A DNA stretch of 39,771 nt, taken from assembly GCA_007121655.1 (NCBI GenBank), contig SKKD01000180.1, positions 1 to 39,771 of the forward strand, written 5' to 3'. The DNA comes from Desulfonatronovibrio sp. Lineage in GTDB: Bacteria; Desulfobacterota; Desulfovibrionia; Desulfovibrionales; Desulfonatronovibrionaceae. Position 1 is the first letter of the stretch. Each line of letters starts with the position of its first letter. The translations under genes and the position numbers were made by a program. Positions 35,040 to 39,548 of this stretch are shown here, piece after piece. The notes under the pieces were generated by a model. The model ran no database searches. It saw nothing but the letters and a program-made list of their open reading frames with translations, and was not told the origin of the DNA.

Positions 35040-35060
35040 AAGAGGAGAGGACGGAAAATC

Positions 35061-35192
35061 AGAGGACAGAGGACAGAGGACAGAGGACAGAGGTCAGAGA
35101 CAGAGGACAGAGATTAGAGGACAGAGATCAGAGAGCAGAGATTAGAGGACAGAGATCAGAGAGCAGAGATCAGAGGACAGAGATCAGAAGAC
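35061..35192. repeat. Heptanucleotide tandem array (AGAGNNN), 19 units
   Basis: Eighteen 7-base units and one 6-base unit run without a break: first four exact AGAGGAC, then mixed AGAGATT, AGAGGAC, AGAGATC and AGAGAGC. The last four words repeat as a perfect 28-base block (35109-35136 and 35137-35164). It begins 22 bases after the livF stop. Such heptamer arrays resemble the STRR sequences of cyanobacteria and grow or shrink by slippage. Confidence 0.92.
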
Positions 35193-35211: not shown

Positions 35212-35288
35212 GTTCAGGGTTCAAGGCTTGAAGAAGATATGAGCAGTGAGTCGTGAATCATGAGCAATTAGCAGTGAACAGTGAGTAA
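35212..35288. repeat. Second heptanucleotide array (TGAGCAG-like), about 11 units
   Basis: In strict 7-base phase: GTTCAGG, GTTCAAG, GCTTGAA, GAAGATA, TGAGCAG, TGAGTCG, TGAATCA, TGAGCAA, TTAGCAG, TGAACAG, TGAGTAA. The words differ from the first array. A GTG that could start the MoaB-like frame (35281) lies in the last unit. Confidence 0.75.
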
Positions 35289-35346
35289 AGAAATCCGGAA
35301 CCGGGAACGGGAAACGCATTTATTACACTATCAGGAGGGTCCGGGT

Positions 35347-36132
35347 TTGACCGGTATTATCACCATCAGAGGCAGGGGGAATTTTTCCTCAGGACATGAA
35401 TATCTCCTTGGTCCGTATAATCCTGAAGGAAAAGAACCAGGATATGTTGCCGGTTATGAGGTCATAAAGGGTCTTAAGGCTGGCGGTTACTTATCCGCCA
35501 AAGAGCCTGAATTTCAGGTGACCGGTAAATTCTGGATGACTGAACAGGGAGGAAAAGGAAGTATTTTTCTGGAGCTCAGAGCCCTGAATGATTTTTTTGT
35601 TGAACAGAGTCTGGAGCTGAACCCTGCCCGCAAGGGTTTCTCCCTTGCCTGGATCACCCTCAGCGACAAGGGATCAAAGGGACAAAGGCTGGATGAAAGC
35701 GGTCCGCTTATTGAGAATATCTGCTCCTCAACGCTCGATATCAGTCTTGCCAGAGGCTTTATTATTCCGGATGATTATGACATTCTTAAATCGCTTCTTG
35801 TACACCTGTCCCTGAGCTCAGGTTTTGACCTGATCATTACCACGGGGGGGACCGGCCTCAGCCCGAGGGACATAACTCCCGAGGTTACCATGGATATTAT
35901 TGATAAGCGTTTGCCCGGCTTTGAACAGGGCATGTTGAGTTATTCACTGACCAGGACTCCCCATGCCATGATTTCCAGAGCCGTAGCCGGTACTCTGGGG
36001 CAGAGCCTTTTAATCAATCTGCCGGGCAGTCCAAAAGGAGTCAGGGAGAACCTGGGAGTTGTTCTGCCGGCACTGGAACACGCCCTTACAAAATTGTCGG
36101 GCGATCAATCTGATTGCGCAGTAAGAGTCTGA
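35347..36132 (+). CDS. MoaB/Mog-type molybdopterin-binding domain protein
   Basis: The C-terminal 160 residues form a MoCF (MoaB/MogA) fold. The markers are ITLSDKG (103-109), TTGGTG (165-170) followed by SPRDITPE, and LINLPGSPKGVRENL near the end. In MogA this fold adenylates molybdopterin. SRB need the cofactor for formate dehydrogenases and related enzymes. The N-terminal 95 residues are not recognised; they are beta-rich and begin GIITIRGRG. TTG 35347 is preferred as start because AGGAGGGT (35333-35340) lies right before it. The longer frame from GTG 35281 has no such site and begins in repeat sequence. The helicase gene follows after one base, so the two are translated together. Confidence 0.75.
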   Translation: MTGIITIRGRGNFSSGHEYLLGPYNPEGKEPGYVAGYEVIKGLKAGGYLSAKEPEFQVTGKFWMTEQGGKGSIFLELRALNDFFVEQSLELNPARKGFSLAWITLSDKGSKGQRLDESGPLIENICSSTLDISLARGFIIPDDYDILKSLLVHLSLSSGFDLIITTGGTGLSPRDITPEVTMDIIDKRLPGFEQGMLSYSLTRTPHAMISRAVAGTLGQSLLINLPGSPKGVRENLGVVLPALEHALTKLSGDQSDCAVRV

Positions 36133-36133
36133 A

Positions 36134-39100
36134 ATGGAAATATTTATTGCTGATCTTCATGTTCATTCCCGTTTTTCGAGGGCCACCAGCAAAAGTCTTG
36201 ATCCGCTCAGTCTGGCGGCATGGGCGCATGTCAAGGGCATAAACGTGGTGGGCACAGGAGACTTCACCCATCCCGGCTGGATGGATATGCTGGAGAATAC
36301 TCTTTACCAGGGGCAGGACGGGCTCTTATATCTCAAGGATGACCAGGATTTAAATTCCAGGGTGCCTGGCTTCGGACATGAATTAAAACCCAGAACCCGG
36401 TTTATCCTTTCCTCGGAGATCAGTTCCATTTACAAGCAGGGAGGCAAGGTACGAAAGATCCATAACCTGGTCTTTATGCCCGGATTTGAACAGGCCAGAA
36501 AGTTCAATCAGAAGCTGGCCCGGGTGGGAAACCTGGAATCTGACGGAAGGCCCATTCTGGGGCTTGATTCCAGAAGCCTTCTGGAAATGGTCCTGGAAAT
36601 TGATCCCATGGCTTATGTGATCCCCGCCCATATCTGGACCCCATGGTTTTCCCTGTTCGGCTCCAAGTCAGGTTTTGACAGCCTGGAAGAATGTTTCAAA
36701 GACTTGTCACCCCATGTTTTCGCCCTGGAAACAGGACTTTCTTCCGATCCTGAAATGAACTGGATGTGGAGTAAGCTGGACCGTTTTGCCCTGGTTTCCA
36801 ATTCCGATGCCCATTCAGCTGAAAACCTTGGCCGGGAGGCGAATATCTTTCAGGGAGAGATGAGCTATGAAGGGATTTACAGAGCTCTGCGCAGGGAAGG
36901 TCTGGGGCACAGGTTCCTGGGAACACTTGAGTTTTATCCTGAGGAAGGAAAGTATCACCTGGACGGACACAGAAAATGCGGTGTGGTTATGGATCCACGG
37001 CAGACCAGGGCCAATAAGGGACGATGTCCTGTCTGCGGCAAGGAGCTAACCGTAGGAGTCCTTAACAGGATTTTGACTCTTGCTGACAGGGAAACTCCGG
37101 TCAAGCCCGCTTTTCAACCTGACTACTTCTCAATTATACCTCTTAAAGAGATTATCTCCGAGATTTTGTGCGTGGGTCCCAAATCCAAAAAAGTTCAGGC
37201 TTTTTATAATCAGCTTGTTTCCGGCTTTGTCTCGGAAATGAATATTTTGCAAAACGTTCCAATTGAGGACCTGGACAGATGTTCTTCGGTTCTGGGCACG
37301 GCCGTCAAGCGTATGCGCGCCGGAGAGGTTATCAGAGATCCGGGATTTGACGGACAGTTTGGAAAAATCAGCGTCTTTTCACCAAAGGAACACCGTGAGT
37401 TTAAAAAGGGCAGGGGAATTGTGGAAATCACCATCCCCGGGGACAAAAATGAGTATATAAGGTGCGACCCGAATCATTTGACCTTGACTGATCCTGAAAT
37501 TGAAAAGGAGACGAAGATCAGCCTGAACCCCGAGCAGGAACAGGCGGTCAAACACGATCAGAGCCCGGTCCTGGTTCTGGCCGGTCCCGGAACGGGCAAG
37601 ACTCAGACCCTGATGGGAAAAGTGAGCGAGCTTTTGAATAGCGGGGTGAATCCAAGACATATACTTATACTTGCCTTCACCAGGAAGGCCGCACAAGAAC
37701 TAAAAGACAGGCTGGCTGAAGAGCATGGCCCGGATCAGGCTTTGCCCAACGCGGAAACTATCCATGCGGTGGCTTACGAATACTGGCAAAGCATTTATAA
37801 TGATCAACCGATGATTCTGGGAGATGATGAAGCCAGAAAGGTATTTTCCACAGCCAACCCGGAACTTAAGGGCTCGGCATTAAAGGACGCGTGGATGGAG
37901 CTGGGTATTGCCAGGGAGAAGCGCCAAACTATATCCGAACCCGGAGAACTCTATGCCCGCCAAAAACAGGACTGGAATCTGGTTGATTTTAATGATCTGC
38001 TGGAATTCTGGCTGGAAGAGATAGAAAGCGGAAAGTTTGTCCGTCCCTTTACCCATGTTCTGGTGGATGAGATTCAGGATCTGTCCCTGCTTCAGCTTTC
38101 CCTGATCAGAAAACTGCTCCCTGAGAGCGGAGAAGGTTTCTTCGGAATTGGTGACCCCAGGCAGTCCATCTACGGATTCAGGGGGGCCTTGAAAGACGTC
38201 AGGGAAACAATGTCGGGGTTCTGGCCTGATCTTAAAATAATTCGTTTATCCCGAAACTATCGCTCTTCACGTACCCTCCTTGATTTTACACAATCACTTT
38301 TTAAGGATGAACCCAGGCTTACTGCTGAAAAGGATATCCCTGGTAAAATTTATTTTTTTCAGGCAATCAGCGCCTCCCAGGAATGTCTCTGGGTTGGCGA
38401 AAAGATCAAGAACCTGCTGGGAGGAACCTCCCACTGGCAAAGCGACATTGCTTCTGAGAATGGTTCCCTGGCTCCTTCGGATATCGCCGTGCTGGTCAGG
38501 TTCAAAGGTCTTATGCCCTCCCTGGAAAAAGAGCTCCAGCGTATGGGTGTTCCAGTAAGCATGCCTGAAAACCAGCCATACTTCAAAGACCAGAGAGTGG
38601 AATTGATTTTGCGTGCCGTGGCCCAGGTCATGGGCATAACTGATGAAAAAAAGGTCTTTGACTGTCCGGAAAAAATTCTGGCCGGAGGCCCCAAAAGTCT
38701 GGCTGCATATCTTGAGGATGTGCCGCCCTTTGATCAAATCTTCTGGAAGGGAAAGGCATTCAAAACTCTGGAGCAGGAATATTCCAGACTGGATGGATGG
38801 GCGGGATTGATGAGCCACGTCAGTCTGGAGAGTGAACTGGCCCAGGTGGATATCAGGGCTCAAAAGGTTAAGATCATGACCATGCACGCTGCCAAGGGCC
38901 TGGAGTTCGAGGCGGTATTTCTTCCATGTCTGGAGGATGGGATTATTCCCTTTGCAGGAACCGACGTACTCCTTGGTCAGATCAAGCCGGAAGAAAAGAG
39001 ATGGGATCCTGAAGAGGAAAAAAGGCTTTTTTATGTTTCCCTGACCAGGGCTAAAAAGAACCTTTTTCTCAGTCTTGCCGGGTCCAGGAAGATATATGGG

Positions 39101-39217
39101 CGACAGTTGAACCTGAAAAAATCAAAGTTATTGAATGAACTTCCCTTTGGTGATATCCAGGTGACCAGGGGAAAAATTCAAAAAAGCAGGAAGGAAAAGC
39201 AGTTAACCTTATGTTAA
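36134..39217 (+). CDS. Endonuclease Q-like PHP nuclease fused to UvrD-type helicase
   Basis: A 1027-residue two-part protein. Residues 1 to about 415 match endonuclease Q, which nicks DNA 5' of deaminated bases or abasic sites. A PHP metal site begins D7-L-H9-V-H11, with D43/H46, an AHIWTPWFSLFG stretch and D225-A-H227. A cysteine group (C282, C298, C301) marks the zinc finger. From about 450 comes a superfamily 1 helicase: Walker A GPGTGKT (484-490), DEIQD (645-649), GDPRQSIYGFRG, RLSRNYRS, HAAKGLEFE (918-926) and YVSLTRAKKNL. At about 560 residues it is shorter than UvrD (720). One base separates it from the MoaB-like gene. Role in repair of deaminated DNA is inference. Confidence 0.88.
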   Translation: MEIFIADLHVHSRFSRATSKSLDPLSLAAWAHVKGINVVGTGDFTHPGWMDMLENTLYQGQDGLLYLKDDQDLNSRVPGFGHELKPRTRFILSSEISSIYKQGGKVRKIHNLVFMPGFEQARKFNQKLARVGNLESDGRPILGLDSRSLLEMVLEIDPMAYVIPAHIWTPWFSLFGSKSGFDSLEECFKDLSPHVFALETGLSSDPEMNWMWSKLDRFALVSNSDAHSAENLGREANIFQGEMSYEGIYRALRREGLGHRFLGTLEFYPEEGKYHLDGHRKCGVVMDPRQTRANKGRCPVCGKELTVGVLNRILTLADRETPVKPAFQPDYFSIIPLKEIISEILCVGPKSKKVQAFYNQLVSGFVSEMNILQNVPIEDLDRCSSVLGTAVKRMRAGEVIRDPGFDGQFGKISVFSPKEHREFKKGRGIVEITIPGDKNEYIRCDPNHLTLTDPEIEKETKISLNPEQEQAVKHDQSPVLVLAGPGTGKTQTLMGKVSELLNSGVNPRHILILAFTRKAAQELKDRLAEEHGPDQALPNAETIHAVAYEYWQSIYNDQPMILGDDEARKVFSTANPELKGSALKDAWMELGIAREKRQTISEPGELYARQKQDWNLVDFNDLLEFWLEEIESGKFVRPFTHVLVDEIQDLSLLQLSLIRKLLPESGEGFFGIGDPRQSIYGFRGALKDVRETMSGFWPDLKIIRLSRNYRSSRTLLDFTQSLFKDEPRLTAEKDIPGKIYFFQAISASQECLWVGEKIKNLLGGTSHWQSDIASENGSLAPSDIAVLVRFKGLMPSLEKELQRMGVPVSMPENQPYFKDQRVELILRAVAQVMGITDEKKVFDCPEKILAGGPKSLAAYLEDVPPFDQIFWKGKAFKTLEQEYSRLDGWAGLMSHVSLESELAQVDIRAQKVKIMTMHAAKGLEFEAVFLPCLEDGIIPFAGTDVLLGQIKPEEKRWDPEEEKRLFYVSLTRAKKNLFLSLAGSRKIYGRQLNLKKSKLLNELPFGDIQVTRGKIQKSRKEKQLTLC

Positions 39218-39336: not shown

Positions 39337-39548
39337 AACAAATTCAGCATCTTAAAGGTTTGCCATACAGATTGCTTCGGTCGCTACGCTTCCTCGCAAT
39401 GACAGGTGAGGCGTAGCCAGAACCGTAATTATCCAGTCATTGCGAGCGAGTCTTCGAGCGCGGCAATCCTTGTTGCGAGCAAAGCGAAGCAATCTATAAG
39501 TTCAGGTCAATTCAAGTTACTTATCGGTTTGGTCCCGGGCCGCCCGGG
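39337..39548 (+). repeat. BIME/REP-like dispersed repeat, copy 2 (uninterrupted)
   Basis: It shares the AACAAATTCAGCAT left end, the inverted pair CTCGCAATGAC / GTCATTGCGAG, and the CCCGGGCCGCCCGGG right end (39534-39548) with the copy at 3110-3421. This copy is about 210 bases and lacks the extra 90-base piece, so it shows the basic form. Both copies point the same way. Confidence 0.75.

What the first reader, a model, noticed from the sequence alone, without database searches (positions are those of the whole stretch)
36134..39217. EndoQ-like nuclease and UvrD-type helicase in one polypeptide
The N-terminal 415 residues carry PHP metal ligands and a zinc-finger-like cysteine group as in endonuclease Q. 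The C-terminal part has all classical SF1 helicase motifs. EndoQ is known mainly from Thermococcales and a few bacteria as a stand-alone enzyme that nicks beside uracil, hypoxanthine and abasic sites. A fusion would let one protein nick at a damaged base and unwind the strand from the nick, a short-cut alternative to glycosylase-based repair. The compact helicase may be missing part of the 2B domain.
Basis: partly seen in the sequence, partly recalled or inferred. Interest (0 to 1): 0.65.

Follow-up and report, generated by a model that had tools for sequence, protein, structure and literature searches.

The report
EndoQ nuclease fused to DNA helicase
One bacterial protein joins an enzyme that should nick DNA beside chemically decayed (deaminated) bases to a motor that can peel the nicked strand away; it occurs in at least eleven bacterial phyla, and in the window's own bacterial order nearly every species has it while most lack the usual uracil-repair enzyme, so it may be an overlooked way of mending DNA.

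Summary
ORF 36134-39217 (+) is an intact 1027-residue protein. Residues 1-414 match solved Pyrococcus EndoQ (E 7e-53; model TM 0.88-0.90). Its catalytic and base-selecting residues are invariant in all 218 bacterial relatives aligned; the zinc site is His-Cys3 instead of Cys4. Residues 463-1008 are an intact SF1A helicase with shortened 1B and 2B subdomains. The fusion is no oddity. It is present in 159 of 160 genomes of the window's order (36/36 genera) and fused in at least eleven phyla, from Actinomycetota to Planctomycetota. Elsewhere the same two genes abut, EndoQ first. In the EndoQ tree all fused and abutting cases fall in one strongly supported clade, while older branches stand alone. 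The order is unusual: 117/160 genomes show no UDG-superfamily match and 159/160 no EndoV, against 12/283 and about 58% in the rest of the phylum. Outside the order most carriers keep UDG, so the fusion usually accompanies UDG and seems to have become the main deaminated-base enzyme only there (inference). No match occurs on plasmids, phages or viral contigs, which argues against mobile defence. I found no description of the fusion in the open literature searched. Activity is untested. New variant of a known kind.

The parts
36134..39217 (+). EndoQ-helicase fusion gene, 1027 aa
   Evidence: (ORF)
36134..37375 (+). EndoQ-like part, residues 1-414 (PHP domain, zinc ribbon, C-terminal helical part)
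   Evidence: aligned to PfuEndoQ 5zb8 over 6-414; TM 0.88-0.90 to 5zb8/7k30
36152..36166 (+). PHP motif D7-L-H9-V-H11 (metal ligands)
   Evidence: invariant in 218 relatives
36416..36418 (+). E95 = PfuEndoQ E76 (E76A abolishes cleavage, PMC8307549)
36461..36463 (+). H110 = PfuEndoQ H84 (H84A abolishes cleavage)
36629..36631 (+). H166 = PfuEndoQ H139 (H139A abolishes cleavage; also excludes normal bases)
36728..36742 (+). E199-T-G201-L-S203 = PfuEndoQ E167, G169, S171; G169 and S171 sterically exclude T and A
   Evidence: invariant
36803..36814 (+). S224-D225-A226-H227 (SDAH motif)
   Evidence: D225 and H227 invariant
36968..37036 (+). zinc ribbon H279, C282, C298, C301 (Cys4 in Pyrococcus, His-Cys3 in this bacterial branch)
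37412..37516 (+). linker, residues 427-461, predicted flexible (pLDDT under 50)
37520..39157 (+). SF1A (UvrD/Rep-type) helicase, residues 463-1008
37580..37603 (+). helicase motif I AGPGTGKT
38066..38080 (+). helicase motif II DEIQD
38150..38185 (+). helicase motif III GDPRQSIYGFRG
38609..38800 (+). approximate place of the shortened 2B subdomain (residues about 826-889)
   Evidence: motif III-V 243 residues against 289-291 in own UvrD/Rep type
38879..38908 (+). helicase motif V TMHAAKGLEF
39014..39052 (+). helicase motif VI (EEEKRLFYVSLTR region)
35281..36132 (+). MoaB-like gene directly upstream, 1 nt apart, probably co-transcribed; neighbourhood kept in much of the order

Best explanation
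A two-activity DNA repair enzyme for deaminated bases and abasic sites. Step 1: the EndoQ part kinks the duplex, flips out uracil, hypoxanthine, xanthine or an abasic residue and cuts the bond on its 5' side, leaving a 3'-OH and a 5'-phosphate (known for PfuEndoQ; inferred here from conserved residues and fold). Step 2: the helicase, held by a flexible linker, loads at the nick. A 3'->5' SF1A motor on the unbroken strand would move toward the lesion and peel off the damaged strand from its 5' end (inferred from the polarity of the UvrD family). Step 3: a DNA polymerase extends the 3'-OH, a flap nuclease removes the displaced lesion-bearing strand and ligase seals (inferred from the published EndoQ repair model). 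In most bacteria it would work beside UDG; in the window's order it is the main recognisable enzyme left for uracil and hypoxanthine. Shown here: domains, intact catalytic, selectivity and ATPase residues, conservation and phylogenetic distribution. Inferred: substrate, loading, polarity and downstream steps.
For: Homology and fold of the EndoQ part. Residues whose mutation kills PfuEndoQ (E76, H84, H139) and those excluding normal bases (H139, G169, S171; PMC8307549) are invariant in 218 relatives. Helicase motifs intact. Present in 159/160 genomes of the order. UDG undetected in 117/160 and EndoV in 159/160, against 12/283 and 164/283 in the rest of the phylum. Gene-context link: fused in at least eleven phyla, and abutting in the same order and strand in 13 distinct unfused loci; all fused and abutting cases of the phylum fall in one EndoQ clade. 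The published EndoQ model already called for a helicase to remove the cut piece (PMC4357722).
Against: No activity shown for any member of this fused branch. Under the TIGR00375 cut-off. Most carriers outside the order also have UDG, so it is not generally a replacement. The order keeps ExoIII, a MagIII-like HhH glycosylase and, in some genera, Ung or a divergent UDG-superfamily protein. About 20 proteins of the helicase-linked clade have no helicase next to them, so the EndoQ part can probably act alone; some of these lie near contig ends.
Confidence: 0.6

Rival explanations
1. Scanning order reversed: the helicase moves first, opening DNA at forks, transcription bubbles or R-loops, and presents single-stranded DNA to the EndoQ part, which cuts at deaminated bases it meets.
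For: EndoQ acts on single-stranded as well as duplex DNA (PMC8307549, PMC11354406); EndoQ in Thermococcales is tied to the replication clamp (PMC4858679); flexible linker.
Against: No fork- or RNA polymerase-binding motif was sought or found; in published in vitro work EndoQ cuts duplex DNA without a motor.
Confidence: 0.2
2. EndoQ-like part with a shifted substrate: mainly an abasic-site or oxidised-pyrimidine endonuclease rather than a uracil/hypoxanthine enzyme, with the helicase clearing the cut strand.
For: PfuEndoQ also cuts abasic sites, dihydrouracil and 5-hydroxyuracil (PMC8307549, PMC11354406); most carriers have UDG already; clear divergence from the curated family; His replaces one zinc Cys near the base pocket.
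Against: The three residues reported to exclude normal T and A are invariant; EndoV is absent from 159/160 genomes of the order.
Confidence: 0.15
3. Anti-phage nuclease-helicase, in the manner of Gabija, that attacks uracil-containing or otherwise modified invader DNA.
For: Nuclease plus UvrD-type helicase is a defence theme; PADLOC GajB models match the helicase half; a defence role has been proposed for Bacillus EndoQ (PMC8307549).
Against: No TOPRIM/OLD GajA part; the helicase hits are generic. One copy in nearly every genome of a whole order, which forms one clade. No match in 72,556 plasmid or 50,697 phage records, and none confirmed in viral contigs.
Confidence: 0.05

Closest known systems
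Endonuclease Q of Pyrococcus furiosus (PF1551; PDB 5zb8, 7k30-7k33) and Bacillus pumilus EndoQ
   Same: Fold (TM 0.88-0.90), metal and selectivity residues, zinc ribbon position, C-terminal helical part
   Different: About 32% identity; under the TIGR00375 cut-off; His-Cys3 zinc site; fused to a helicase; PfuEndoQ ends where the linker begins
UvrD/PcrA/Rep SF1A helicases
   Same: All classical motifs, Pfam PF00580/PF13361, fold by Foldseek
   Different: About 209 bits against equivalog cut-offs over 900; 1B about 35 and 2B about 47 residues shorter than own UvrD/Rep type; separate clade from own UvrD with the few outgroups used
Gabija GajA-GajB defence pair
   Same: Nuclease working with a compact UvrD-type helicase
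   Different: No GajA; nuclease is PHP/EndoQ; order-wide core gene, not on mobile elements
AddAB/RecBCD/AdnAB helicase-nucleases
   Same: UvrD-type motor and nuclease in one chain
   Different: Those carry a C-terminal RecB-type exonuclease for double-strand breaks; here the nuclease is N-terminal and EndoQ-like

Membership tests
Endonuclease Q | PHP metal ligands D6, H8, H10, E76, H84, H139, E167, D193, H195 (5zb8 numbering) | tested here: met
   All identical, at 100% over 218 relatives
Endonuclease Q | Residues that exclude normal T and A: H139, G169, S171 | tested here: met
   H166, G201, S203, 100% over 218 relatives
Endonuclease Q | Four-cysteine zinc ribbon | tested here: inconclusive
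   Three Cys kept, first Cys is His279 in nearly the whole bacterial branch; His is a common zinc ligand but binding was not shown
Endonuclease Q | EndoQ fold | tested here: met
   TM 0.88-0.90 normalised to the target, rmsd 2.6-3.8
Endonuclease Q (NCBIfam TIGR00375) | Curated score cut-off 326.6 bits | tested here: not met
   175.7 bits; PfuEndoQ itself 430.1, stand-alone bacterial relatives 185-211. Filed as an EndoQ-like sister branch, not as TIGR00375
Endonuclease Q | Nicks 5' of uracil, hypoxanthine, xanthine, abasic sites | not testable with these tools
   needs purified protein
SF1A helicase (UvrD/Rep superfamily) | Motifs I, II, III, V, VI and both UvrD Pfam domains | tested here: met
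UvrD, PcrA or Rep ortholog | Equivalog cut-offs TIGR01073/01074/01075 | tested here: not met
   209.3, 199.3, 184.8 bits against 911, 951, 1144
SF1A helicase | 3'->5' DNA unwinding with ATP | not testable with these tools
   inferred from family
Gabija | GajA ATPase/TOPRIM nuclease with GajB | tested here: not met
   only GajB-type helicase models match; nuclease is EndoQ-like

The most novel reading that the evidence does not exclude
The fusion is a widespread, undescribed bacterial repair machine that nicks at deaminated bases and strips the damaged strand in one polypeptide, and in the window's order it has taken over uracil and hypoxanthine repair after loss of UDG and EndoV, making it a large bacterial group that lives largely without uracil-DNA glycosylase.
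Probability: 0.45. Interest if true: 0.78.

Novelty: new variant of a known kind. Interest (0 to 1): 0.63.

Why it matters
Uracil-DNA glycosylase is regarded as the prime uracil repair enzyme, and how 'UDG-lacking' organisms cope has been an open question in Archaea (PMC6202378). Here is a bacterial order where 117 of 160 genomes show no UDG-superfamily match and 159 no EndoV, but 159 carry this protein, so the question becomes testable in culturable mesophiles. The fused and abutting forms also identify a likely partner for EndoQ: the original EndoQ paper drew a helicase step without naming an enzyme (PMC4357722). Finally, EndoQ-like enzymes turn out to be spread over many bacterial phyla rather than a few groups.

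Tried and rejected
Generic PHP phosphatase: rejected, no significant PHP Pfam match (PHP_C only E 0.006), EndoQ-specific residues kept. Frameshift or assembly fusion: rejected by order-wide conservation. 'Fusion always replaces UDG': rejected, most carriers outside the order have UDG. Defence island or mobile gene: no match in plasmids or phages, none confirmed in viral contigs. PADLOC GajB matches are generic UvrD similarity. Early reading that E-values near 1e-15 for PF03167 were spurious was wrong: L064 is a family-1 Ung and further sequences show the same motifs, so the count of UDG-lacking genomes uses no match at all. Fisher p-values are not used because the genomes of one order are not independent. 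Motif search by regular expression missed one or more motifs in 49 of 158 helicases, some truncated at contig ends; only the lengths from complete sets are used. Papers on EndoQ structure are not held. Literature searches for EndoQ with UvrD, COG1379 with UvrD, and PHP with UvrD returned no paper that a hit list or passage showed to describe the fusion; TIGR00375 gave none.

Full report
Observation. The window has an intact ORF at 36134-39217 (+), 1027 aa. It starts one base after the stop of a MoaB-like gene. Residues 6-414 align with the solved PfuEndoQ structure at E 7e-53, and NCBIfam TIGR00375 matches with E 1.9e-51 but at 175.7 bits, below its 326.6 cut-off; PfuEndoQ itself scores 430 and stand-alone bacterial relatives 185-211, so the whole bacterial branch is a distant sister of the curated family. 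Residues 463-1008 are an SF1A helicase: PF00580 and PF13361, motifs AGPGTGKT, DEIQD, GDPRQSIYGFRG, TMHAAKGLEF and RLFYVSLTRA.

Structure. An AlphaFold2 model on 27 order-level fusions has mean pLDDT 81, pTM 0.65, and a disordered linker at 427-461. Foldseek gives TM 0.88-0.90 (by target) to EndoQ 5zb8/7k30 and about 0.6 to UvrD, PcrA and Rep structures. The lower TM for the helicase fits its different subdomain layout, although domain placement in the model may add to it.

Active site. In an alignment of 218 bacterial relatives (139 fused, 13 abutting, 66 stand-alone or undecided) with PfuEndoQ, 55 positions are identical in Pfu and over 97% of rows. They include E76, H84 and H139, whose alanine mutants are inactive, and H139, G169 and S171, reported to exclude T and A sterically (PMC8307549). 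All of these are 100% conserved. The zinc ribbon keeps three Cys; the first is His279 in nearly all rows.

Helicase size. Motif III to V is 243 residues in the window, 289-291 in the order's own UvrD/Rep-type helicases, and 166 to 333 across the EndoQ-linked family; motif I to II is 161 against 196. So 1B and 2B are cut down here, and some lineages (f58, f81) have lost most of 2B. In a helicase tree the fused and abutting helicases fall together, away from the own UvrD (100 support), but only five outgroup sequences were used.

Distribution in the order. A search of 160 genomes (at least 90% complete, plus the window's own) finds the protein in 159, in 36 of 36 genera; nearly all listed matches lie in open frames of about 1000 residues or more. 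The one missing genome, G014, is a 200-contig assembly.

Distribution in the phylum. In 296 genomes, EndoQ-like proteins occur in 197 by TIGR00375, 195 after two weak matches are dropped. By open frame and profile coverage, 84 are fused (71 outside the order; one of the 13 in the order is cut by a contig end), 7 abut a helicase gene, about 104 were counted stand-alone, and 101 have none. Only 40 stand-alone loci were fetched to look for a neighbouring helicase, so 104 is an upper limit.

Other phyla. Fused members occur in Thermodesulfobacteriota, Actinomycetota (Saccharopolyspora, Saccharothrix, Frankia), Myxococcota, Gemmatimonadota, Planctomycetota, Chloroflexota, Latescibacterota, Binatota, Pseudomonadota, Fibrobacterota and Elusimicrobiota, and in KSB1. 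Many of these are metagenome bins, whose labels may be wrong for single contigs; several are isolates.

Origin of the link. In a 122-row EndoQ tree of the phylum the older branches are all stand-alone. One branch with support 100 holds all 65 fused and 7 abutting rows plus 20 rows without a neighbouring helicase. The simplest reading is one origin of the pairing, EndoQ upstream of helicase, then fusion, then several fissions and losses. The root rests on a single long outgroup branch, and the labels need 16 changes in all, so the exact number of fusions is not settled. Two abutting cases (L113, L132) are separated only by a stop codon in the same frame.

UDG and EndoV. PF03167 gives no match in 117 of 160 genomes of the order, including single-contig genomes 99-100% complete, against 12 of 283 in the rest of the phylum; the same search rings in 13 of 14 control genomes. 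Of the 43 positives, sampled ones are family-1 Ung, family-4 or UdgX-like proteins, or a divergent superfamily protein of unknown activity. EndoV is found in 1 of 160 against 119 of 283 at E under 1e-17. The fusion does not by itself go with loss of UDG: 69 of 71 fused genomes outside the order and 46 of 50 carriers (fused or abutting) from the cross-phylum scan have a PF03167 gene. Loss of UDG is therefore a trait of the order, on a background where the fusion was already present.

What else could handle uracil there. ExoIII is present in 28 of 31 relatives and Nfo is patchy. The window's genome has a MagIII-like HhH protein. A HhH-type UDG is known from Methanocaldococcus (own knowledge), so a glycosylase outside PF03167 is not excluded. 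The window's genome is about 90% complete, but its relatives at 96-98% agree.

Mechanism. The EndoQ cut leaves the lesion at the 5' end of the downstream strand. A 3'->5' motor on the unbroken strand moves toward that side, so it would peel off exactly the damaged strand; on the broken strand it would move away. The published EndoQ model has strand displacement with flap removal, or a second cut followed by helicase removal (PMC4357722). The fusion would supply that motor. This geometry is inference from the family, not shown.

Novelty. Stand-alone EndoQ and its presence in Bacillus and in the genus Desulfovibrio are known (PMC4357722); the 2015 text notes homologs 'along the entire region' and the passages read do not mention a helicase part. 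Searches of 5.39 million open papers returned nothing shown to describe the fusion, but subscription papers and figures could not be read.

Noticed in passing
35281-36132: MoaB-like protein (MoCF domain at residues 123-267, extra N-terminal 120 residues) one base upstream of the fusion; kept next to it in several families of the order, with no obvious functional link.
   Followed up: partly
35046-35192: Array of about ten imperfect 14-bp units (AGAGGACAGAGATC) between livF and the MoaB-like gene.
   Followed up: no
39366-39498: Nested inverted repeats (TACAGATTGCTTCG / CGAAGCAATCTATA and CTCGCAATGACAGG / CCAGTCATTGCGAG) after the fusion gene; looks like a dispersed palindromic element; GCGAAGCAATCT is also in L052 and L187.
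   Followed up: partly
whole order: Endonuclease V is missing from 159 of 160 genomes of the order; the one carrier, G410, also has UDG family proteins, which suggests gene transfer.
   Followed up: partly
L255, L256, L259, L260: Divergent UDG-superfamily protein (motif GEALGYQGGHFSGIAMTSE / GEAAGHRGCALTGM) at the edge of PF03167, activity unknown; may be more common in the order than the search shows.
   Followed up: partly
L136, L144 (families f81, f58): EndoQ-linked helicases with only about 166 residues between motifs III and V, so most of the 2B subdomain is gone.
   Followed up: no
L161 (window's genome), L165, L167-L169: MagIII-like HhH-GPD protein conserved in the order, below NCBIfam cut-offs; a possible non-PF03167 glycosylase.
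   Followed up: partly
L113, L132: EndoQ and helicase separated only by a stop codon in the same frame, possible recent fissions or sequence errors.
   Followed up: no
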